Positions 13,396 to 64,000 of a stretch of 64,000 bases of DNA are shown here, in pieces. The notes beneath the pieces were generated by a model that saw only the letters and a program-made list of their open reading frames with translations, ran no database searches and was not told the DNA's origin. Within the stretch, counting starts at the first letter, position 1, and every line of letters begins with the position of its first letter. Both the position numbers and the translations under genes were made by a program. The stretch is from Mesodorylaimus sp. YZB2_4 (Eukaryota; Nematoda; Enoplea; Dorylaimida; Dorylaimidae), in contig JASANH010001188.1 in assembly GCA_030248295.1 (NCBI GenBank), forward strand, positions 281,757-345,756. Direction: 5' to 3'.

Positions 13396-14190
13396 CGATT
13401 CAAAATTTGGTATGGACGAAATACAGATATTGGATGTGCAGCCTCCTATCCGAGGGTCACACCTTCTCGCACTCACTCGACTCGGGGTCTGTTGTCGGAC
13501 TGGAGGCGGGAGGGGATTCGACTACTCCTTGCAGACACGGCCCGACCAGTACAGAAAGAGTTGGCTGGCTTGTTATTCGAGTTGTAGGAACAAGTGCTAA
13601 ATTTTTCAAGAAACCGTCTTACACCTCGCCTTGGTCGTCTTAAGCGGATGGGCCGGGCTTATACGTGTGCAATGGCACGGTTTTATGCGCTTTTCAGTCC
13701 CCTGGCCTCCAAGCGTAAACAATGCCCCGGGCGGGAGTCTCGAAAAACGGAGACGGTTTACGTTGGGGCTATTAGCCACTTCCCAGACCCTGTTGCGCAG
13801 CTTTATCTGCCATACGGCCAGCACGCCCTGGTGCATTCCCTGGACTAGCCTAAGCTACCCAACCATTCGGACACCCATAGCAAATCGGAACATCTGTTTT
13901 AGGCACTATCTCGAAGTCTGCTGCACCGGTGGAGAGGGGCGGTGGCATGTAGCTGCTTTTTCCTTGCACCTTTGTTATCAGCCCAGGGATTTCCAATTTC
14001 TCCTGGCTATAGGACAAAATGCAGAACACTATGGCGATAAGAAAAGCACGCTTAAAGAGTTTTCACATGTTTTTCACCTAATCTTATTTTGTACCGCTTA
14101 TAAGTGCCAAGTCTACGCAAACTAACTGTGCACATATTGCTTTGTATCCTTTGAATACTCCTTTGGACATACTGTAGATTGGATTGGATT
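13396..14190. other. intergenic, upstream of the collagen gene
   Basis: This holds the presumed collagen promoter in its left part. Open frames of 76-164 codons occur on both strands from 13606 to 14125 but show no recognisable motif. A short GTTGCGCAGCTTTAT string near 13790 recurs near 19734, which suggests repeat content. Confidence 0.4.
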
Positions 14191-14194
14191 GTAC

Positions 14195-16130
14195 ATCCTG
14201 ACCAAACCTGCTCTGTACCAAAAAGGGACATCCGAGATGGTTTACTAACGCTCTACAACGCAGTGGAATATATAAAATAGAAGGAAATATCCGCCTTAAT
14301 TTTGTCACTTGGCCACATGTCAGCCTTTGACATAATCGAATGGGAATATGTATTCCGTGTTTCGGATTTTTTTGAATTGGGTCCTGTATTTCAGCAGTGG
14401 GTTCACCTTATCTGTAAAACGGCTTTAGTAACTTCATCAGTTCAGGTAAACGGTTGTGTGTCAGGGGCATTGTGCAGGGTTGCCCCCTGTCTGCATTGCG
14501 CTACGTGCTAGTGTCTGAAACGGTAACGAATTGCATAAGGAGGGACATGGCTGTGACTGGAATTGACTTGGTTGGGGAACATCTCAAATTGCGCAACTAT
14601 GCAGATGACACAAATTTTCTACTCTCTGATTGTGGTTTTCTAAAAGAAAGAGAAGGGATGGAGATAGCTGTAAACTGGGATGGTGTCCGAAACCACATAG
14701 GCACGCTAGGAAACATGACACCACACAATGACATGTCCTATTTCGGTGGGGTATACGTGCCTAATACTTATTTCTTGTCCAAACTTTGGTACTTAGCATC
14801 AGTGATTGCACCAAAAGATGATTTGCAACGGTTTGCTGAGACACATATGGATTCATATCTCAGGCATCCGGCCAAGCAGAATGTAATAAACAAGCGCATT
14901 TTGAAAAGGACCAAAGAGCAAGGAGGAGTGGGATACCCTGGCTTTAAAATTGAGCTAGCCAAAAAGAACCCAGACCATACAAGTGCAAGCCCTTATATCC
15001 AGAAGTTCACGCAGTCCTGTAAAGGCGTGGCTAATCCACTTCCAGTATGAATTGCACAGTGCACACGCGGAATAGACATGCCATCATGTGCGTGGCTAAA
15101 TGGTCATTGGCTACAAGGAAACTATTATGCTACCATGAATAGGCTATGACTAGGTAGTCCGTTACCTTATTTGCACAATGAGTATGCACGCGTGTGAATG
15201 AAATTTGCGTCTGCTTTACACTCCAGCCATGATTTCACAGGTTGCTCCATGGTTTTTTTGTCACGTACCAAAGTGTTTGAGTATTTGATTATGATTTTTC
15301 CAGGATGTAGATACTTTTTTGATTAAATGGTTATACGGAAAAAAAATGACTAATGAGCCCAGGATTTATGGCGCCGGCGATGTAGGCGGGAATGAAAACA
15401 TAAAAAAGCATAAACTAATCCTGACTAAAGGAAAAACAGGTGCTCACACAAAATGCGTCTGTTGCGTCTGGACTAAACCAAAACAAGTGCAATTGACAGT
15501 CGACACTCGAAAATCGAGCATACAACAAATGAAGCATGGAAAAAGCAAGCTTTTGTACAGACGCATGCTTGAGAAAATGGTGGGCAAGGCCACAATGGCG
15601 ATGGAGGAATATTGGAGGGAGAAATTTGGGAAAGGATCGATTGACTTTAGTGCATATTGGAGACTAAATACAACAAAGCACGTCGATGGTCTAACACAAA
15701 GCACACATTACTCCCTTCTGTACAAAGGATTGTATACAAGGAGCAGAGTGTCCAAGTTTACAGATGTTACTTCAAACTGTAAGTACTGGACAGAGCTGGC
15801 TGGCTAGGATAAATACGAAGACGTTTAATATGTTTTTGTCGAAAGTCACAAAGTTCAGGTTTTTTTGGGACAGGGTGAATGTATTTATTCAGGAAATTGA
15901 CCAGACCGTCACTCTGAACCATGAAAGCATGATTTTCGGAGTGACTGGCGGAAAATCCTCACATTTGAAGATGATTGTAAACTCGATTTTACAATCAGCG
16001 CAGGAATGCATTTGGTTTGCTAGAATGGATTGAGGAAAAGAACTCAGACACTGACCTTTGGGTTTCACTTTTAAAGCGAAACCGACTGTTGTTTAAAAGA
16101 GCTAGGTATTTTGTAGATATTTGTTGGGGT
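14195..16130 (+). pseudogene. decayed Tx1/L1-like LINE, ORF2 remnant
   Basis: The sequence follows the reverse transcriptase of the near-intact LINE at 37.85-43.1 kb, beginning at the palm motif before GRDIRDG and continuing through HMSAFDIIEWEY and NYADDTNFLLSD. It then passes the later domains (YFLSKLWYLASVIAP, AYWRLNTTKHVDGLT) to near the ORF2 C-terminus. It is broken by stop codons, frameshifts and deletions: one stop falls at about 14278, and sequence after the YADD box is missing. It lacks ORF1 and the endonuclease, as expected of a 5'-truncated insertion. Divergence from the 38-kb element is clearly higher than between the 17.4-kb and 45.6-kb copies, so it is an older or separate subfamily. 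Confidence 0.85.
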
Positions 16131-17434: not shown

Positions 17435-17715
17435 TTACGGGGACTATCCAGACGTGAATACCAAGGTTCTAGCTTTCAGATTGATGCTTCTTCTACGTAG
17501 GCTGACTGCACAGCAGGATGCTGCGTGGGGTGCGTGCTTTGTTTTTTTCTATGAGAGTGCGATATGCGAGCCTGAACCAATTGGACAGCATAATGGTCCC
17601 CCAGCTGTACAGGGATATACGCAGGGCTTTGAACACGTCAAGACCAAGCTGCTGTATGAGCACATGATGGAAAAGAAGGCGGGGAAATACATAATAGGAA
17701 TTTAAGGGAATAGGA
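17435..17715 (+). pseudogene. short LINE ORF2 fragment
   Basis: Closely matches 45620-45930, with only scattered differences, starting at NYPDVNTKVLAF-like coding and running to the HMMEKK segment, after which it ends in an A-rich tail near 17720-17765. One stretch present in the 45-kb copy (the VGLDTRTYPI region) is missing, so this is an internally deleted, 5'-truncated copy. Confidence 0.8.
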
Positions 17716-37586: not shown

Positions 37587-37849
37587 ATGGCCAAAAGCAC
37601 AACAGGACCCCGTCGTAAAAATACTTTCCAATCTTGCCATATTGGACTCTACATATTCACTTTGGTCTCGTGTGGACTTATTTTTGTGAGTCAAATTTGC
37701 ACTTCAAGAATTGGAGTTTAAAAATTTAATTGTTTTAGGTGCTTTGGTATAATCCAGATGCAATACCAGAAAAAACATTGATGACTATGATTAGACGCCG
37801 TCGAGGCAAGTCGGGTCTCAACTCTCTCTCCTGCGTGTGCAGAAACTAG
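37587..37849 (+). CDS. small single-pass membrane protein, two exons
   Basis: Exons 37587-37685 and 37739-37849 join in phase across a 53-nt intron with GTGAGT donor and TTGTTTTAG acceptor, giving 69 residues. The N-terminus is basic (MAKSTTGPRRKNTF), followed by one hydrophobic segment (about residues 20-36, GLYIFTLVSCGLIFVLWY). The C-terminal half carries a basic cluster (MIRRRRGK). The short basic-TM-basic layout resembles small subunits of membrane complexes, but I cannot name a family. The last dozen codons (after RRRRGK) run into sequence that may already belong to the LINE inserted behind it, so the native C-terminus could differ. Confidence 0.5.
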
Positions 37850-37995
37850 TTTTTTTACGTAATAGAGCGAAAGGACAACGGATAGAGATCTTGATATTGA
37901 TAAGATTATATCGAATCGATTACCTGATTTCACTTTACGGAATCCTCTGGAGGAGGAAGTATCGTGGTTCAAGGTATTTCACGGGAAGGAGAATA

Positions 37996-39507
37996 ATGGA
38001 GAATCAAGCTTCCAATACGATGGAAATCGAAAATGAGTTCATTTTGGAAAACACCACGTCTGTCAAGAGCGGGTTCGAGTTTGCCTACATCTCATTGCGG
38101 TCGAATGATCTGCTCGACAAGAGTGTAGAGGTGATTATGAAAGCCATCTCGGAAGAAAATCCAAAAGAAAGACATCCATTATTTGCTTGGCGCTTCGCTC
38201 GTGCAATTAAGCTGGCCTATCCAACAAAAGAATCACGTGACCTGGTCGTCAAGGAAAAATTGTCAATTTTCAATATTCGTGTCGATATTGAAATGCCAAA
38301 AGTGTTCACTCCCGAGGGGAGAAAAACCATTCATTTGTTTGGAATACCGATCGACATTGGACACACGGAAGTAGAAAAGTGGCTCAAAGATCACGGATTT
38401 CCAAGCAGGTCAGAAATGAGATGGATCACCTATCGTGGAACGGAAATTAGATCTGGTGCAAGATCAGTTATTGTGTCGTTGCCCCCTGAGAAGGAAATAC
38501 CTGGATACATCGACTTCAAGCCTCGTGATCAAAGAAAAGCATTCTCGGTCCAAGTATGGTATCACGGAATGCCCATTTGGTGCTGGCGATGTAAGAGCAA
38601 AGGCCACATGGCAAGGAATTGCTATCTTGCCGACTACCGACCAGAACCAGGCTCATATGCAGCGATGGCCAGCGGTGGTGGAGGATTTCGACAAGCTGCT
38701 GAATCAGGATCGATAGGACCGACTCCGACAACGAATATATCGAACAAGCCTAATGAGATCAGCAATGAAGAGTACCCCCCACTGACAACCTTGACCGCCA
38801 ATGCACCAGTCATCACTCGACCGAACCGAGAAACAGCTGCCACAGCAGTGGCAAGTGTTCAAGAAATTCTTCCTTTTTTTTCGAAAGAATCGCCTCTTTC
38901 GAATCACCATCCATGCGCCTTTACGATAGATGGCCAAAGCTTCACTTCAACTGAGCAATATCTGTATAAGGAAAGGGCGAAAGCAGTGGGTGACAAGGAA
39001 GACGAAATGAGGATCATGAACGCGGAATCAGCGGCTGAGACGAAAGCGATTGGCAAAAAGATCAAGTGGAACGAAAAGGATATGGGCAAGTGGATTGATT
39101 TCGCGAAGAAAAAATTGTATTTGGCAAACTTCAAAAAATTCGAATGCAATCCGGAATTAAGAAAATTCCTGTTTGAAACATCGCCTAAACTACTGGTGGA
39201 GGGCAATCCGAACGATAGTCGATGGGGTGTTGGCCTGAGCTGTGACGATCTGGAAATTTTTGATCAATCCAAATGGAAAGGGAAAAACGAATTTGGCAAG
39301 CTGCTGACGGAACTGCGAGACAAGATGATGAAATTGCCGCAGTTTGAAAAGGAAGTGCATGAAGTGATGGAGAAAAGAAAGCAAGCCGAAATGAGGAAAC
39401 GACAGCGTAGCAGCGACGGGGAATCGAGTGGAGAGGAGCAATCGGACACGCATCCAAAACGTAAGCAGAGCTGTAACAATGTCCTGGATGAGAGCTTGGC
39501 TTTTTGA
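37996..39507 (+). CDS. LINE ORF1 protein: zinc knuckle plus NADAR domain
   Basis: 503 residues from the ATG at 37996; the frame is open upstream but has no other ATG. Residues about 100-195 match the Tx1-type ORF1 core (RKTIHLFGIPIDIGHTEVE, VQVWYHGMPIWCWRC). A CX2CX4HX4C knuckle follows (Cys196, Cys199, His204, Cys209), then a Ser/Thr/Gly-rich spacer. Residues about 292-445 form a complete NADAR domain: FFSKESPLSNHHPC, the F-T-S-T-E-Q-Y core (Glu320), AAETKAIGKKI, KKLYLANFKKFECNPELR, LLVEGNPNDSRWGVG (Trp410) and a closing FGKLLTELRDKM. The tail is basic and Ser/Glu rich. NADAR proteins act on ADP-ribose-linked substrates, including ADP-ribosylated guanine in nucleic acid. A role in the element's nucleoprotein or in host evasion is inference. 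Confidence 0.9.
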   Translation: MENQASNTMEIENEFILENTTSVKSGFEFAYISLRSNDLLDKSVEVIMKAISEENPKERHPLFAWRFARAIKLAYPTKESRDLVVKEKLSIFNIRVDIEMPKVFTPEGRKTIHLFGIPIDIGHTEVEKWLKDHGFPSRSEMRWITYRGTEIRSGARSVIVSLPPEKEIPGYIDFKPRDQRKAFSVQVWYHGMPIWCWRCKSKGHMARNCYLADYRPEPGSYAAMASGGGGFRQAAESGSIGPTPTTNISNKPNEISNEEYPPLTTLTANAPVITRPNRETAATAVASVQEILPFFSKESPLSNHHPCAFTIDGQSFTSTEQYLYKERAKAVGDKEDEMRIMNAESAAETKAIGKKIKWNEKDMGKWIDFAKKKLYLANFKKFECNPELRKFLFETSPKLLVEGNPNDSRWGVGLSCDDLEIFDQSKWKGKNEFGKLLTELRDKMMKLPQFEKEVHEVMEKRKQAEMRKRQRSSDGESSGEEQSDTHPKRKQSCNNVLDESLAF

Positions 39508-39515
39508 AACTGTAA

Positions 39516-42500
39516 GATTGGGCTTCGGGCGGTGCTAGGTCTTGTTGGTCAATATTTCTTGATCTCATCATAGGTCCAAAAATATTTTTTGCAACTTACA
39601 ATACTGCTGGGCTGAGAAATAAGGTGCCAAAAATTCTCTCAGTTTTTGAATTTTTGAAAGTGTATGATGTAGTTTGTATGCAGGAGACGCATTTTCGAAG
39701 CCACTCTGAAGCGGCCTACTTTGACAGTGTTTTTGAAAGCAGATTTATGATTTTCCATAGTTTTTCACAAGAGTATTGTTCAGGGATATGTATGTTGGTC
39801 AGTAGGGCTTGTTTGTTCTCGGAAATAACTCGCATAACCAGTATTGAAGGTAGAGCAATAGCATTGAAGGTTCGATATGAGTCTAGGATTTTTCTTCTTT
39901 TTGGAGTATATGCGCCTGCTCAAGAGTCCCCTAGGAAAGCTTTCTTTGACCAGTTACTCGACAAGGCTTTAGAAAAGTTCCGGTACCACGATGCTGCCTT
40001 TTGCATGGGAGATTTCAACTTTGTCGAGTCCAAGGAGCTCGACCGAAGTGACCTCACGGTCTATCCAGAGGGCGGGCTAAAAGAGTTTTCTAAATTTTCA
40101 TCTAAATTTAAATTGCACGATATCTTCCGATATCATAATCCGAAGACAAAAGAATTCTCTCATCTTGCTCACAGTTCCAAAACTCAAGGGCGACTTGACA
40201 GAATTTATGGCACTGAAAACGCGGTTGAGTCGTACAGCAAGCATGAATTCATAGAAACAGGACTGTCTGATCATAAGATTTTTCAAATTTCTTTTATATT
40301 TAGCTTTGCGCAGATTAAAAGAGGACCTTCTTACTGGAAACTAGACGTAGAGTTTTTACAACGTGACGATGCTTTGAAGGAACAAGTCAAAAATAAGCTT
40401 TTGTTTTTGGAGGCCTACCTCCAAGGCGCATGCGATAGGGATGTGCTGAGTGCGTGGGATCAGTGCAAGTCTGAAATAGGACGGTTGTGCAGAGCATCTA
40501 AAACTCAGTTCGAGTCCTACGGAAGGAAAAGAAGAGCGGGTATAGCAAAGGACCTGGAGAGGGCTAAGGCACTGCTGGCACAGTATCCCAGGAGTGACGT
40601 GATGAAAGCTGAATACGAGGAAGTAAGGGAAAAACTAAGGAGTTTTGACCGCGAGGAAATCAGGAAGAGATTGACAAAAACGCACTATAAAGATTTGGCA
40701 ACAGACCAGTTCACGCTGGTAACAGCCAAACTAATGCAAAAGAATTCGGCTGAATTAAGAACAGTGTACGCGATTAAAGATGATAAGGGGATCGTGCATG
40801 ATAATCAACTGGAGGTGATAGCAGAAGTGAGAAGACAGTACGCATCGTTGTTCACAAGTGCAGGGACGATCAAGGAAAATGCGGCAAGAATGTTTTTAGA
40901 CCAACCTCCCTTCGGTACAGCCGACGAGGTAGACAGGGCTGCACTGGAGGGAGAGATAAGTGAAGACGAGGTAAAAAAAGCGGTTCTCTCCTTCAGCAAA
41001 AAGAAATCGCCAGGCAGTGACGGGCTGCCAATAGAATTCTATTTGACGTTCTTGGCTGAGCTAAGTGTCATTTTGACCAAAGTTTTTGCAGCTAGCTTGC
41101 GTCTAGGGGAGTTGCCAGGGAGCTTGTACTTTGGAATAATATCCCAGTTGTACAAAGGAGAAGGTGATAAAAAGCTTAGGTCCAATTGGAGGCCACTGAC
41201 CATGCTCAATGTGGACTACAAAATCCTGGCTAAGGTTTTAGTGATAAGGCTTAGGAACATAATGTGCAAGCTTGTGCACCCCGACCAAACGTGCTCAGTG
41301 CCAGGAAGGGACATAAGGGACGGAGTGCTTACTTTGTACAACGCAGTTGAGTATGTCAATGAGAAGGAAATGGGGGCCATGCTGTTGTCTGTCGATCACA
41401 TGTCGGCCTTCGACATCATCGAGTGGGAGTATATGCAACGTGTGCTAGAATGGTTCAGATTGGGCGAGGGGTTCCAGAAATGGATAGGAATAATTTACAA
41501 GGACGGCCTAGTTGCTTCTTCGGTTCAGGTGAACGGTTACATATCCACCAGCTTCCATCCTAGTAGAGGGGTCAGGCAAGGTTGCCCACTGTCCGCACTG
41601 CTATATGTACTGGTGTCGGAAACAGTGACCAATTATATCAGGAGGGACAAACTGGTCAAAGGACTGGACATCTTAGGACAAGAGCAAAAGATAAGTAACT
41701 ATGCGGATGATACGAATTTCTTGGTGTCTGATGAACATTCAGTAGGTCGTATCATGCACATCTATGAGCACTATAAAAGAGCCAGCGGGGCAACATTGAA
41801 AACAACCAAGACAAAGATTCTGTGTCTAGGAAAGAAAGAGCCTGACAGCGTAGGACCCGAGCTGAGGCCCTTTGTTGTAGACAAGGTAAAAGTCTACGGA
41901 TTTTTCATTGGAAAAGAGGGAATGGAAGTTGCGGATAATTGGACTGGGGTACGGGAGCACATCGCTTCATTAGGCACTAGGATAGCACATTCAGAAGTTT
42001 CCCTGTTTGGCAGGATTCATGTAGCAAATACATATTATCTTTCAAAGTTGTGGTATCTTGGATCAGTAATTGCACCTGGAACTGACTTACAAAAACTCAC
42101 AGAAAGAATGATTGACAATTATCTTTGGCATCCAGCCAAAGTCAACAAAATAAACAAACTAGTGCTGAAGAGGAGCAAAGACCTGGGCGGAATAGGCTAC
42201 CCGGACATAGGCTGGAAGATACTCGCTTTTAGGTTGATGTTACTACTTAGAAGAACCCTGGCGCAGCAGGAAGCCGTGTGGCACAGATCTTTCGACTACT
42301 TTTTCGAGCGAGTTAGGCATGCAAAGTTATGTCATGTAGGAGAAATAAAGACACCTCGTCTGTACAAAGATATAAGAAGGGCGGAGCTTACAGCGAACTT
42401 CAAGCTGCTTGACCAGCACAGCGTCGGGCTGGACACGAAAACATACCCGATAAAGCATGTCAAAACAAAGATGCTCTATAAACACCTGATGGAGAAGAAG

Positions 42501-43106
42501 ACAGGGAAGGCCACAGCTGCCATGCAAAGTTACTGGTGTGAAAAATTGAGTACAGCTAATCTGGACTTCAGGGCCTACTGGAGACTAAACACGAGCAAAC
42601 ATGTGGACGGTCTGACCAGGTCGATACACTACAGTCTCCTGTACAAGGCACTGTACACTCGGAGTAGGATCACCAACTTCGCAGATGTAGATGAGTCGTG
42701 CAAGTACTGTGAGACAGTAGCGGGCCAGAGTATCCGCGAGGACGGATACCATGTTTTCGTAGAGTGCCAAAGAGTGCTTGAGTTCTGGAAGAAAGTGGAA
42801 GGCCTTCTCCAAAGAATGGATCCTTCCATCAAGTTCAGAGATGAGAACAAGATCTTCGGTCTGGCGGGCATAAAAAGCAAATCTACTTTCGTGACAGCGA
42901 ACATAGTTTTGCAGTCAGTCCAGAGATGTGTTTGGTTCGCCAGAATGGATTTTGAGGAAAAAGGAAAACTGGTAGATTTATGGGAATCACTGAGGAAGAG
43001 ACTTTGGGTCTTGACAAAGAGGGCTCAATTCATTTTGGACAAGCATCGGTTTGAAGATACTTTTCTGAAGTCTTTTTTCATGCAAGAATTGAAAAATATG
43101 GAATAG
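39516..43106 (+). CDS. LINE ORF2 protein: endonuclease and reverse transcriptase
   Basis: The frame opens after a TAA at 39513 and runs unbroken to 43106 (1196 codons). The APE-type endonuclease begins at ATYNTAGLRNK and shows MQETHF, GDFNF and a SDH motif, so the catalytic Glu, Asp, Asn and His are in place. Reverse transcriptase motifs are KSPGSDGLPIEF, NWRPLTMLNVDYKIL, the Asp of SVDHMSAFD, RQGCPLSALLY, and NYADDTNFL near 41697-41723. A C-terminal zinc motif CKYC...GYHVFVEC (CX2C...HX4C) lies near 42699-42770. The protein nicks target DNA and primes reverse transcription there. No ATG occurs before 39678, which is inside the endonuclease, so the start is marked only as the opening of the frame. 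Confidence 0.9.
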   Translation, partial: DWASGGARSCWSIFLDLIIGPKIFFATYNTAGLRNKVPKILSVFEFLKVYDVVCMQETHFRSHSEAAYFDSVFESRFMIFHSFSQEYCSGICMLVSRACLFSEITRITSIEGRAIALKVRYESRIFLLFGVYAPAQESPRKAFFDQLLDKALEKFRYHDAAFCMGDFNFVESKELDRSDLTVYPEGGLKEFSKFSSKFKLHDIFRYHNPKTKEFSHLAHSSKTQGRLDRIYGTENAVESYSKHEFIETGLSDHKIFQISFIFSFAQIKRGPSYWKLDVEFLQRDDALKEQVKNKLLFLEAYLQGACDRDVLSAWDQCKSEIGRLCRASKTQFESYGRKRRAGIAKDLERAKALLAQYPRSDVMKAEYEEVREKLRSFDREEIRKRLTKTHYKDLATDQFTLVTAKLMQKNSAELRTVYAIKDDKGIVHDNQLEVIAEVRRQYASLFTSAGTIKENAARMFLDQPPFGTADEVDRAALEGEISEDEVKKAVLSFSKKKSPGSDGLPIEFYLTFLAELSVILTKVFAASLRLGELPGSLYFGIISQLYKGEGDKKLRSNWRPLTMLNVDYKILAKVLVIRLRNIMCKLVHPDQTCSVPGRDIRDGVLTLYNAVEYVNEKEMGAMLLSVDHMSAFDIIEWEYMQRVLEWFRLGEGFQKWIGIIYKDGLVASSVQVNGYISTSFHPSRGVRQGCPLSALLYVLVSETVTNYIRRDKLVKGLDILGQEQKISNYADDTNFLVSDEHSVGRIMHIYEHYKRASGATLKTTKTKILCLGKKEPDSVGPELRPFVVDKVKVYGFFIGKEGMEVADNWTGVREHIASLGTRIAHSEVSLFGRIHVANTYYLSKLWYLGSVIAPGTDLQKLTERMIDNYLWHPAKVNKINKLVLKRSKDLGGIGYPDIGWKILAFRLMLLLRRTLAQQEAVWHRSFDYFFERVRHAKLCHVGEIKTPRLYKDIRRAELTANFKLLDQHSVGLDTKTYPIKHVKTKMLYKHLMEKKTGKATAAMQSYWCEKLSTANLDFRAYWRLNTSKHVDGLTRSIHYSLLYKALYTRSRITNFADVDESCKYCETVAGQSIREDGYHVFVECQRVLEFWKKVEGLLQRMDPSIKFRDENKIFGLAGIKSKSTFVTANIVLQSVQRCVWFARMDFEEKGKLVDLWESLRKRLWVLTKRAQFILDKHRFEDTFLKSFFMQELKNME

Positions 43107-44039
43107 AATGTAAACAATAATAAGAATAAAAATATATATAAAAGATTCTTTGATCATTTAAGGACCAGTTTTTTCGTGTTCTTTGTGGGGACTAAAGGAT
43201 GCATTGCGATCTTCAGTATGTGTCTGATTTTGTACCGCGTTTACGTGCCAGTTAAGTAAAATATGCTAATTTAAAAAAAAAAAAAAAAAAGAAAAAACAT
43301 TGAACTATATTGGAAATAAATATAATCTGGTGTTTGGCGCCATGTAAGTCGAAGAAAGTTGATGGGAGACGCCTGTGCAGGATGTGAACAAGGGTCTCGC
43401 ATCGAACTTTTGGTTGGAATTTGTTGGTTGCTTTCTACTGATGAGATGGGGGACGCGTTTTCCAGTTAGCCGTGCCAACTTTATTCTGGCAGCGCCAGAC
43501 AAGAAATGATATGCCGCATATACTTCTGGTACTGAGGGGACTAAGAGAACTAAACTGCCGCACCAGCGCCTAAAATCATGACGGCTAGCAACACTATGTA
43601 CAGTGAATTAAATCCACTTCACTCAGATATTACTGAAAGAGTACTTTTGTAGAACTTGGTTTCTTTTGATTGCGCACGCGGGTGAAGCCTACTACGCCTC
43701 GACATTATGCCGTCAAAAGCAAATCAAAGGATCAGCAAAAGTAAAATGGATCGTGCAAACATTTCTTCTTGGACTCCCATCATTGCTACTATTACGGAAA
43801 CAGAAGCGTGGAGATTAGTTAGACAGGGCTCACTTGCGTCCTTTATAACGCCTTCTTTATTACTGCTTAGTCGTACTGTATTACTTGTATTTCAGATGAT
43901 GCGGCATTGATAACTGGGCGGGTATGTAGTGTTGACAACTTGCCTATAATCCAACGACTTGGAAAGCAAAAACAAAAGCTTTGTGCTGCCAATTGCTTAA
44001 CTCATCGATTAGTCAGCAAAAGAGCAATTTCAAGAAAAA
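43107..44039. other. intergenic with A tract
   Basis: The LINE tail, then an A run at about 43273-43290. Only short frames. The sequence TTTTGTACCGCGTTTACGTGCC near 43230 has a diverged relative near 14088, ahead of the older LINE copy. Confidence 0.4.
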
Positions 44040-45145: not shown

Positions 45146-45359
45146 CAATTTTCGACGCAGGGCCAGTTCTGTTCTTCAGGCCATCTTGCTGTATCATCAT
45201 TTCTTTACCTTCATAAACCACTTTTAGCAATTTTGCAGATGGCACTAAATTGAAGCGAAATGACCTTAGATTGGCAGCAGCAAGAGGCAGGGGCTAGGGA
45301 AGGAGTTGCTGCATTTTGTGCAATAAACTAAATATATTTTCATGATTAAACTACCAACA
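45146..45359. other. spacer
   Basis: Short spacer between repeat copy B and the next LINE copy. Nothing recognised. Confidence 0.4.
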
Positions 45360-46600
45360 CACCTAACTGGGCAGCTGCAAGAGACGAGATAGGAACATTG
45401 AATAGTAGTAGTCCCCACAGTGAGATATCATATTTTGGGAGAGTCCATGTCCTAAGCACCTATTTTCTGTCCAAAGTGTGGTACTTAGCATCGATTGTTG
45501 CGCCGGATGCTGATTTCCAGAGATATGTTGAGAAACATATGGATGCATATTTCTGGCATCCTTCTAAATCGAACATGGTGAATAAATTGATTTCGAAACG
45601 AGGCAGAGACCTCGGAGGTGTTAACTATCCAGACGTGAATACCAAGGTGCTAGCTTTCAGATTGATGCTTCTTCTACGTAGGCTGACTGCACAGCAGGAT
45701 GCTGCGTGGGGTGCGTGCTTTGATTTTTTCTATGGGAGAGTGCGATATGCGAACCTGAACCAATTGGACAGCATAATGGTGCCTCAGCTGTACAGGGATA
45801 TACGCAGGCTGTGAAGACAGCCAAATTCAGCTTATCGGATCAAGGCACTGTTGGATTGGATACAAGAACATATCCGATTAAACACGTCAAGACCAAGCTG
45901 CTGTATGAGCACATGATGGAAAGAAGGCGGGGAAAGCTACGCTAGCAATGCAGGAGTATTGGGAGGGGAAGCTAGGAAACGAGCATATCGACTTTAAGGC
46001 ATACTGGAGGCTCAATAGGACCAAGCACGTCGATGGCCATACGCGAAGTATACACTACGCTCTACTGTATAAGGCACTGTACACAAGAAGCAAAGTCTCG
46101 CATTTTGCATCTGAGGTTGATTCACACTGCAAGTACTGTAAGAAGCAGGGAACAGATGAGCACGAGGGTGTGTACCACGTTTTCGTCCAGTGCCCGAGGA
46201 CACGCGAATTCTGGGAAAAAGTGGAGTGTCTGTCGAAGAAAGTTGACCCATCACTAATTCTAAGGGAGGAGAATAAGATTTTTGGTATCACCGGCCTACA
46301 TCGCAAGCATATCGCCTGCTTTGCAAACATGGTTTTGCAGTCAGCACAGCGGTGCATATGGTATGCGAGGGCTGACTTTGAGGATGAAGACAAGATAGTG
46401 GACTTGTGGGATGCACTGCGGAGGAGGATGACAGTTTTGACTAAACGAGCCAGGTGCATTCTGTCACCGCGCATGTTCCAGGATTATTTTGCAGAGCCGT
46501 CTCTCGTGGAGTTGTTAGATTAGGGCTTTGAGGAAATTAACGAAACACAATAAAAAATAAAATAAAATAACAAAATTTAAAAAAAATTGAAAAGAAAAAG
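45360..46600 (+). pseudogene. 5'-truncated LINE ORF2 copy
   Basis: Covers the C-terminal third of ORF2. It begins near EISYFGRVHV, runs through WYLASIVAPDADFQ and NYPDVNTKVLAF to a stop at about 45812, then resumes in other frames (LDTRTYPI, AYWRLNRTKHVDGH). It ends with the zinc motif CKYC...YHVFVQC and a final stop at 46521. Two frameshifts, near 45815 and 45925, break it. The 3' end is an A-rich tail, AATAAAAAATAAAATAAAATAAC. The sequence is close to the fragment at 17435 and more distant from the intact element, so it represents another subfamily. Confidence 0.88.
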
Positions 46601-63854: not shown

Positions 63855-64000
63855 CGAATATATCGAACAAGCCTAATGAGATCAGCAATGAAGAGTACCC
63901 CCCACTGACAACCTTGACCGCCAATGCACCAGTCATCACTCGACCGAACCGAGAAACAGCTGCCACAGCAGTGGCAAGTGTTCAAGAAATTCTTCCTTTT
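63855..64000 (+). mobile_element. second copy of the NADAR-bearing LINE, 5'-truncated, cut by window end
   Basis: Base-for-base identical to 38732-38877 over all 146 nt up to the window edge, beginning within the ORF1 spacer at CGAATATATCGAAC. The sequence before 63855 is unrelated, so this is an insertion truncated inside ORF1. It continues beyond the window and would include the start of the NADAR domain. Confidence 0.92.

What the first reader, a model, noticed from the sequence alone, without database searches (positions are those of the whole stretch)
37996..39507. A NADAR (YbiA-like) domain built into ORF1 of a LINE retrotransposon
Seen: a single uninterrupted frame joins a Tx1-type ORF1 core and CCHC zinc knuckle (Cys196 to Cys209) to a full NADAR domain (about residues 292-445) with its F-T-S-T-E-Q-Y core, NPNDSRWG motif and closing Leu/Arg helix. 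The retrotransposon ORF2 follows 8 nt later. Known: NADAR proteins handle ADP-ribose-linked compounds, and members remove ADP-ribose from guanine in DNA. Inference: the element may use it to strip host-added ADP-ribose from its RNA or cDNA, or to act on NAD-derived marks, which would be a counter-defence carried by a LINE. I know of no established LINE family described this way, but cannot search the literature.
Basis: partly seen in the sequence, partly recalled or inferred. Interest (0 to 1): 0.92.

Follow-up and report, generated by a model that had tools for sequence, protein, structure and literature searches.

The report
NADAR domain in nematode LINE ORF1
A jumping gene in a worm genome carries, inside its RNA-packaging protein, a conserved enzyme-like domain of the kind that removes ADP-ribose from guanine bases, which suggests but does not prove that the element cleans such marks off its own RNA or DNA; a similar domain in oyster jumping genes was mentioned in print in 2025.

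Summary
ORF1 (37996-39507) carries a full NADAR domain (PF08719, 105 bits, E 5.9e-30) behind an untyped core and a CCHC knuckle; ORF2 is LINE-1-like. The copy is full length, with poly(A) and a 14-bp target-site duplication. The unnamed 145-Mb host, a nematode by its TTR-52 genes, holds several NADAR-LINE families 64-69% alike in DNA. All 11 of 18 fetched loci that match both core and RT also match NADAR; no full-length relative without it was met. NADAR changes as slowly as ORF2 (dN 0.25-0.35 against 0.24-0.32), which points to selection, not a one-off capture. Catalytic Glu, Asp and Trp are kept; an ADP-ribose-contacting arginine (R79) is kept in 0 of 11 lineage rows and a key lysine is Arg in this family. 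Elsewhere, LINE-1 ORF1p-like proteins also carry NADAR (32 of 85 hits). Not wholly new: a 2025 paper reports NADAR in ORF1 of oyster Tx1 LINEs. Counter-defence is plausible but untested; no structure model could be made.

The parts
37768..37781 (.). upstream target-site duplication (14 bp)
   Evidence: same 14 bases follow the poly(A) tail; 2 occurrences on the + strand of the window
37782..43289 (+). full-length NADAR LINE
   Evidence: bounded by the duplication; copy L016 aligns 37789-43297 at 99.5%
37996..39507 (+). ORF1, 503 aa
38089..38565 (+). ORF1 N-terminal core (residues 32-190), no Pfam match
   Evidence: alignment A1; Pfam scan
38581..38622 (+). CCHC zinc knuckle (residues 196-209)
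   Evidence: zf-CCHC 16.2 bits, below cut-off in this copy; C196, C199, H204, C209 invariant in 7 aligned ORF1s
38884..39327 (+). NADAR domain (residues 297-444)
   Evidence: PF08719 5.9e-30; genome search over cut-off
39516..43106 (+). ORF2 reading frame (1196 aa stop to stop)
   Evidence: LINE-1 ORF2p structures E about 1e-68 over residues 26-898
39572..39573 (+). AG after a pyrimidine-rich stretch, like a 3' splice site, ahead of the ORF2 endonuclease
   Evidence: similar site at the same place in L010, L011, L013, L014, L018, L021, judged by eye; function inferred
39591..40274 (+). ORF2 endonuclease (PF03372)
   Evidence: 7.2e-11
41172..41900 (+). ORF2 reverse transcriptase (PF00078)
   Evidence: 9.7e-27
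43273..43289 (+). poly(A) tail
   Evidence: sequence
43290..43303 (.). downstream target-site duplication

Best explanation
This is a recently active LINE of the LINE-1 superfamily whose ORF1 protein joins an RNA-packaging part to a working NADAR enzyme. ORF1p coats the element's own RNA, so it brings the NADAR to the RNA, the cDNA and the target site. There it most likely removes ADP-ribose, or a similar ribosyl adduct, from guanine or another base, put there by host ADP-ribosyltransferases, so that reverse transcription is not blocked. Shown: the domain, its place, its spread over several families, its constraint, the kept catalytic residues, recent mobility. Inferred: that it is active, the substrate, delivery in cis, and the benefit to the element.
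For: Domain match. Of 11 lineage rows the E43, D130 and W133 positions are kept in 11 each, W89 in 10 and E125 in 10 (the E125 exception, L014, is a copy with broken frames) (residue roles from PMC11543638, passages). NADAR dN 0.25-0.35 in 10 pairs of five families, as low as ORF2 (0.24-0.32, 6 pairs of four families) and below core, linker and tail. 35 of 49 core stretches have a NADAR match within 2.5 kb; 13 of the other 14 lie in fetched loci and none of those is a full-length element without NADAR. 10 PARP stretches in the host genome. NADARs of several classes remove guanine ADP-ribose (PMC11543638, PMC11125620). PMC9503650 argues that NADARs of eukaryotic RNA viruses mainly target host ADP-ribosylation of macromolecules (passages).
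Against: Pocket changes: R79 position kept in 0 of 11, R93 position Ala in 11 of 11 (but that position varies in other NADARs too), K50 position Arg in all four window-family copies checked. E. coli C7 NADAR uses the matching lysine (K95) for catalysis (match by spacing). No DarT match in the host genome. One close pair, L012 and L013, shows no constraint in the NADAR part (dN 0.072, dS 0.081), as decaying copies would. No assay, no structure model. dS is saturated in nearly all family pairs, so no exact dN/dS.
Confidence: 0.45

Rival explanations
1. The NADAR processes small or end-linked NAD products (NAD-capped element RNA, ADP-ribose phosphate from RNA repair), and is not a base de-ADP-ribosylase.
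For: The changed pyrophosphate contacts hint at another ligand. PMC12477816 proposes RNA processing for retroelement NADARs; PMC9503650 discusses soluble ADP-ribose derivatives and NAD caps.
Against: No ligand data. PMC9503650 assigns the soluble-product role mainly to phage NADARs.
Confidence: 0.22
2. The NADAR serves as a binding or structural module of the ORF1 particle, with catalysis dispensable.
For: NADARs of the nematode trans-splicing protein SNA-3 work in RNA metabolism, and its first NADAR lacks the catalytic residues (PMC9303266, passages). Pocket altered here.
Against: E320, E402, D407 and W410 positions are kept in all six lineage members with open frames that were tabulated. In SNA-3, mutating the matching residues of its second and third NADARs impaired function, though the authors allow for misfolding.
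Confidence: 0.22
3. A recent one-off capture or read-through with no function.
For: None found, apart from decaying copies such as L012.
Against: Domain in several families 64-69% alike in DNA, constrained like ORF2, and in two ORF1 proteins from other, unnamed sources (P0002, P0003).
Confidence: 0.02

Closest known systems
Tx1 LINEs of Crassostrea gigas with NADAR in ORF1 (PMC12477816; passages seen)
   Same: LINE ORF1 protein carrying a YbiA-family NADAR.
   Different: Other phylum; their ORF1 core, copies, selection and active site are not described in the passage I saw, so kinship of the core is untested.
Ectocarpus Gypsy LTR elements with NADAR at the N-terminal part of Pol (PMC12477816)
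   Same: NADAR in a retrotransposon.
   Different: LTR element; domain in Pol; by that paper's blastp almost only bacterial relatives outside Ectocarpus.
LINE-1 ORF1p-type proteins with C-terminal NADAR (32 of 85 proteins; profile of 19 of them)
   Same: LINE-type ORF1 plus NADAR at the C-terminus.
   Different: Coiled coil and LINE-1 ORF1p fold (2ykp, E 2.3e-12) in place of the CCHC core; DNA context and ORF2 not seen.
NADAR of PDB 8bau, taken here for the Phytophthora nicotianae protein by its residue pattern, and E. coli YbiA
   Same: E43, W89, E125, D130 and W133 positions kept in the window.
   Different: K50 is R, R79 is K and R93 is A in the window.
Nematode SNA-3 (PMC9303266) and the host's own NADAR genes (L039, L040)
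   Same: NADAR in a nematode genome; SNA-3 works in RNA biology.
   Different: Host genes, some split by introns; first domain of the C18 gene is 37% identical to the window NADAR, no nearer than bacterial ones at 38%.

Membership tests
NADAR (PF08719), YbiA subfamily | Profile match over the curated cut-off | tested here: met
   105.1 against 35.1 bits
NADAR (PF08719), YbiA subfamily | Glu at the E125 position (Asp in BC4488, His in phage type) | tested here: met
   E402 (rule)
NADAR (PF08719), YbiA subfamily | Catalytic Glu and Lys (E43, K50) | tested here: inconclusive
   E320 kept; K50 position is Arg in the window family, Lys in 10 of 11 lineage rows
NADAR (PF08719), YbiA subfamily | Hydrolysis of guanine-linked ADP-ribose | not testable with these tools
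   no assay; structure jobs never accepted
LINE of the LINE-1 superfamily | ORF2 with endonuclease and RT, nearest to LINE-1 ORF2p | tested here: met
   LINE-1 1.1e-68, R2 1.6e-8 at best, among solved structures
LINE of the LINE-1 superfamily | Poly(A) tail and target-site duplication | tested here: met
Tx1 clade | RT phylogeny with Tx1 references | not tested
NADAR-bearing Tx1 LINE of Crassostrea gigas | NADAR in ORF1 | tested here: met
NADAR-bearing Tx1 LINE of Crassostrea gigas | Homologous ORF1 core and ORF2 | not testable with these tools
   Repbase sequences not held

The most novel reading that the evidence does not exclude
NADAR is a long-lived LINE accessory enzyme: one retrotransposon NADAR lineage, joined to at least two unlike ORF1 types (CCHC core and LINE-1 ORF1p type), kept by selection as a counter-measure to ADP-ribosylation of element nucleic acid, with a pocket remodelled in the nematode-type lineage for its own substrate.
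Probability: 0.25. Interest if true: 0.85.

Novelty: new member of a known kind. Interest (0 to 1): 0.6.

Why it matters
The role of nucleic-acid ADP-ribosylation in animals, and the substrates of animal NADARs, are open (PMC11125620, section 7). A LINE lineage that keeps this domain under strong constraint gives a natural, testable system: if the domain acts on the element's nucleic acid, hosts must be marking it. I saw one printed passage on LINE NADARs; the families, constraint and active-site data here make the question concrete.

Tried and rejected
One-off capture: rejected.

NADAR-less sister copies: of the 14 core stretches without a NADAR match, C250 (L027) has a core 100% identical but satellite-like DNA from the NADAR start into the RT; C946 and C313 stop at contig ends. 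L175 and L176 hold NADAR remnants. L172 has core and knuckle but neither NADAR nor endonuclease in the next 1.8 kb; L171 has a core piece and a later endonuclease piece with 1.4 kb between them that matches neither; L173, L174 and L177 are short fragments. The C257 stretch is a minus-strand knuckle piece in L026. C175:115877 was not read. Of 15 endonuclease stretches without NADAR upstream (of 53 entered) 5 were read; none has an ORF1 match in 2.4-2.7 kb upstream, as 5'-truncated copies would.

Two independent captures of NADAR: not established. A first tree of 85 rows parted the two ORF1 types, but the AU test did not reject them together (p 0.304); a broader tree of 82 rows put them together (96/54; 98% of bootstraps), though the same label needed more changes in the first. 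Rows dropped: 21 of 105 sequences before the first tree (a second domain of P0005 was added); 27 of 109 before the second, mostly long or near-identical branches; of 129 collection loci (49; 80 kept of 451) 24 were used, picked by hand. Two rows (P0057, P0077) were put in the LINE group after the first tree was seen.

Exact dN/dS: dS saturated in nearly all family pairs. ORF1-ORF2 frameshift: frames differ between families. SL1: exact pattern 0; RNA family 0, but no control rang. Rfam on 37600-38100: none. LINE-1 ORF1p type in this genome: no match, with no positive control. That type in viral contigs: none confirmed. Profile-profile comparison of the two ORF1 types ran through the whole length, so it does not decide whether their N-terminal parts are related. 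Structure prediction: 26 attempts, all answered 'machine busy', so no model and no fold search.

Paper searches: (listings seen). Seen of papers: passages of PMC12477816, PMC9303266, PMC9503650, PMC11543638, PMC11125620, and section 7 of the last.

Full report
What is there. ORF1 (37996-39507) is a single 503-residue frame with a core, a CCHC knuckle and a C-terminal NADAR domain. ORF2 (39516-43106) matches LINE-1 ORF2p structures from endonuclease through RT at E 1.1e-68, and R2 at 1.6e-8 at best. The insertion ends in poly(A) and is flanked by a 14-bp direct repeat, 37768-37781 and 43290-43303. It is therefore a full-length retrotransposed copy. Copy L015 is 99.5% identical with both frames open and lacks the first 35-42 bases; L016 (99.5%) has a broken ORF1 frame, and L024 (98.5%) is 5'-truncated with broken frames.

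Host. It has 27 TTR-52 stretches (0 of 14 control genomes, of which the named ones I saw are bacteria, so the control is weak; that TTR-52 is typical of nematodes is recalled) and several genes with more than one NADAR. I read it as a nematode. An exact SL1 sequence was not found.

Families. The NADAR profile rings 75 times in the genome. In 31 of 75 both the ORF1 core and the endonuclease lie on the right side and at the right distance; 4 have the core only, 11 the endonuclease only, and 29 neither (of the 142 endonuclease stretches I entered 53). Of the 29, 13 lie in 7 loci that I read; none of those shows a LINE part, and I take them for host genes. Eighteen loci around the best matches were fetched. 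By BLAST with window pieces the endonuclease matches in 18 of 18, NADAR in 17 (not L023, whose NADAR was seen by profile with stops), the core in 14 and RT in 14; core, NADAR, endonuclease and RT together in 11, and no locus with core and RT lacks NADAR. The missing parts go with contig ends (L012), 5' truncation (L024) or unexplained loss (for example L013 has no RT match, L011 and L022 no core match). Outside the window family the DNA is 64-69% identical over most of the aligned stretches.

Constraint. Among five families with open ORF1, dN is 0.25-0.35 in NADAR, 0.39-0.56 in the core, 0.21-0.73 in the short knuckle, 0.65-1.19 in the linker and 0.58-0.92 in the tail; ORF2 has 0.24-0.32 over six pairs of four families. 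Synonymous sites are saturated, so only the order of constraint is firm. Close pairs are uneven: L009 and L010 dN 0.008, dS 0.025; L012 and L013 dN 0.072, dS 0.081, without constraint, as expected between decaying copies. The between-family pattern is what selection for the domain's function predicts.

Active site. Using 8bau as ruler, where all eight residues named in PMC11543638 fall on the expected letters with an offset of two, the window keeps E43 (E320), W89 (W366), E125 (E402), D130 (D407) and W133 (W410). K50 is R327, R79 is K354 and R93 is A370. In the lineage (11 rows) R79 is kept in 0 and R93 is Ala in 11. R79 is kept in 13 of 13 bacterial and 10 of 11 viral rows, in 30 of 35 other cellular-type rows and in 14 of 32 rows of the second ORF1 type; R93 varies everywhere (R in 8 of 13, 4 of 11, 6 of 35, 2 of 32), so only the R79 change is telling. 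The catalytic core looks intact while the grip on the pyrophosphate has changed. The K to R change is shared by the four window-family copies examined.

Second ORF1 type. The third hit of the first protein search, P0004, led to 85 NADAR proteins. Of these, 32 carry a related N-terminal part, and a profile of 19 of the 32 matches LINE-1 ORF1p structures (2ykp, E 2.3e-12). Their DNA context could not be seen, so 'LINE ORF1' rests on that homology. Trees do not settle whether the two types share one NADAR capture. In the broader tree LINE NADARs and the host C18 gene stand apart from 43 bacterial, viral and other rows (98/84), so a recent bacterial source is not favoured; in plain identity the nearest non-lineage rows are of the second type (43-44%), then bacterial (38%) and the C18 gene (37%).

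Mechanism. ORF1 proteins of LINEs bind their own RNA (established, recalled). A NADAR fused there would act in cis on RNA, cDNA or target DNA. NADARs remove ADP-ribose from guanine (PMC11543638, PMC11125620). The host has 10 PARP stretches and no DarT match, so the marking enzyme is unknown. I put 0.45 on base de-ADP-ribosylation in cis.

Known before. PMC12477816 (September 2025) states that ORF1 of several Crassostrea gigas Tx1 LINEs appears to hold YbiA-family NADARs, besides Ectocarpus Gypsy elements (passages). In the searches listed under Tried and rejected, which cover open-licence PMC papers only, I saw no other report. I therefore file this as a new member of a known, scarcely described kind.

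Noticed in passing
39508-39680: The open ORF2 frame has no ATG before the endonuclease motif (first Met at codon 55); the same holds in eight other loci tested (L010-L013, L015, L018, L019, L021). A pyrimidine-rich stretch plus AG, like a 3' splice site, precedes the endonuclease in the window and in L010, L011, L013, L014, L018, L021, with a GGCACCAAG-like motif in several: ORF2 may be made from a spliced or trans-spliced RNA.
   Followed up: partly
37789-37830: A 5'-terminal motif of the form GRCGCCG...AGTCGGGYCT is shared, by eye, by four of five families looked at (window, L010, L017, L021); no Rfam match in the window.
   Followed up: partly
45350-46523: A 5'-truncated related LINE (ORF2 C-terminal part, 54-70% identical); further ORF2 pieces at 14188-16118 and 17445-17687.
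   Followed up: no
63855-64000: The window ends at the contig end inside a second ORF1 fragment (146 bases, 100% identical); contigs C946 and C313 end within 16 bases of the same ORF1 place, at or just before a T run followed by a short inverted repeat: probably an assembly break.
   Followed up: partly
L038, L039, L040: Host genes with two or more NADAR domains; L040 has three in one 768-residue frame, recalling SNA-3.
   Followed up: partly
G000:C196:125996: An endonuclease match lies in an open frame reported as 22,320 residues long.
   Followed up: no
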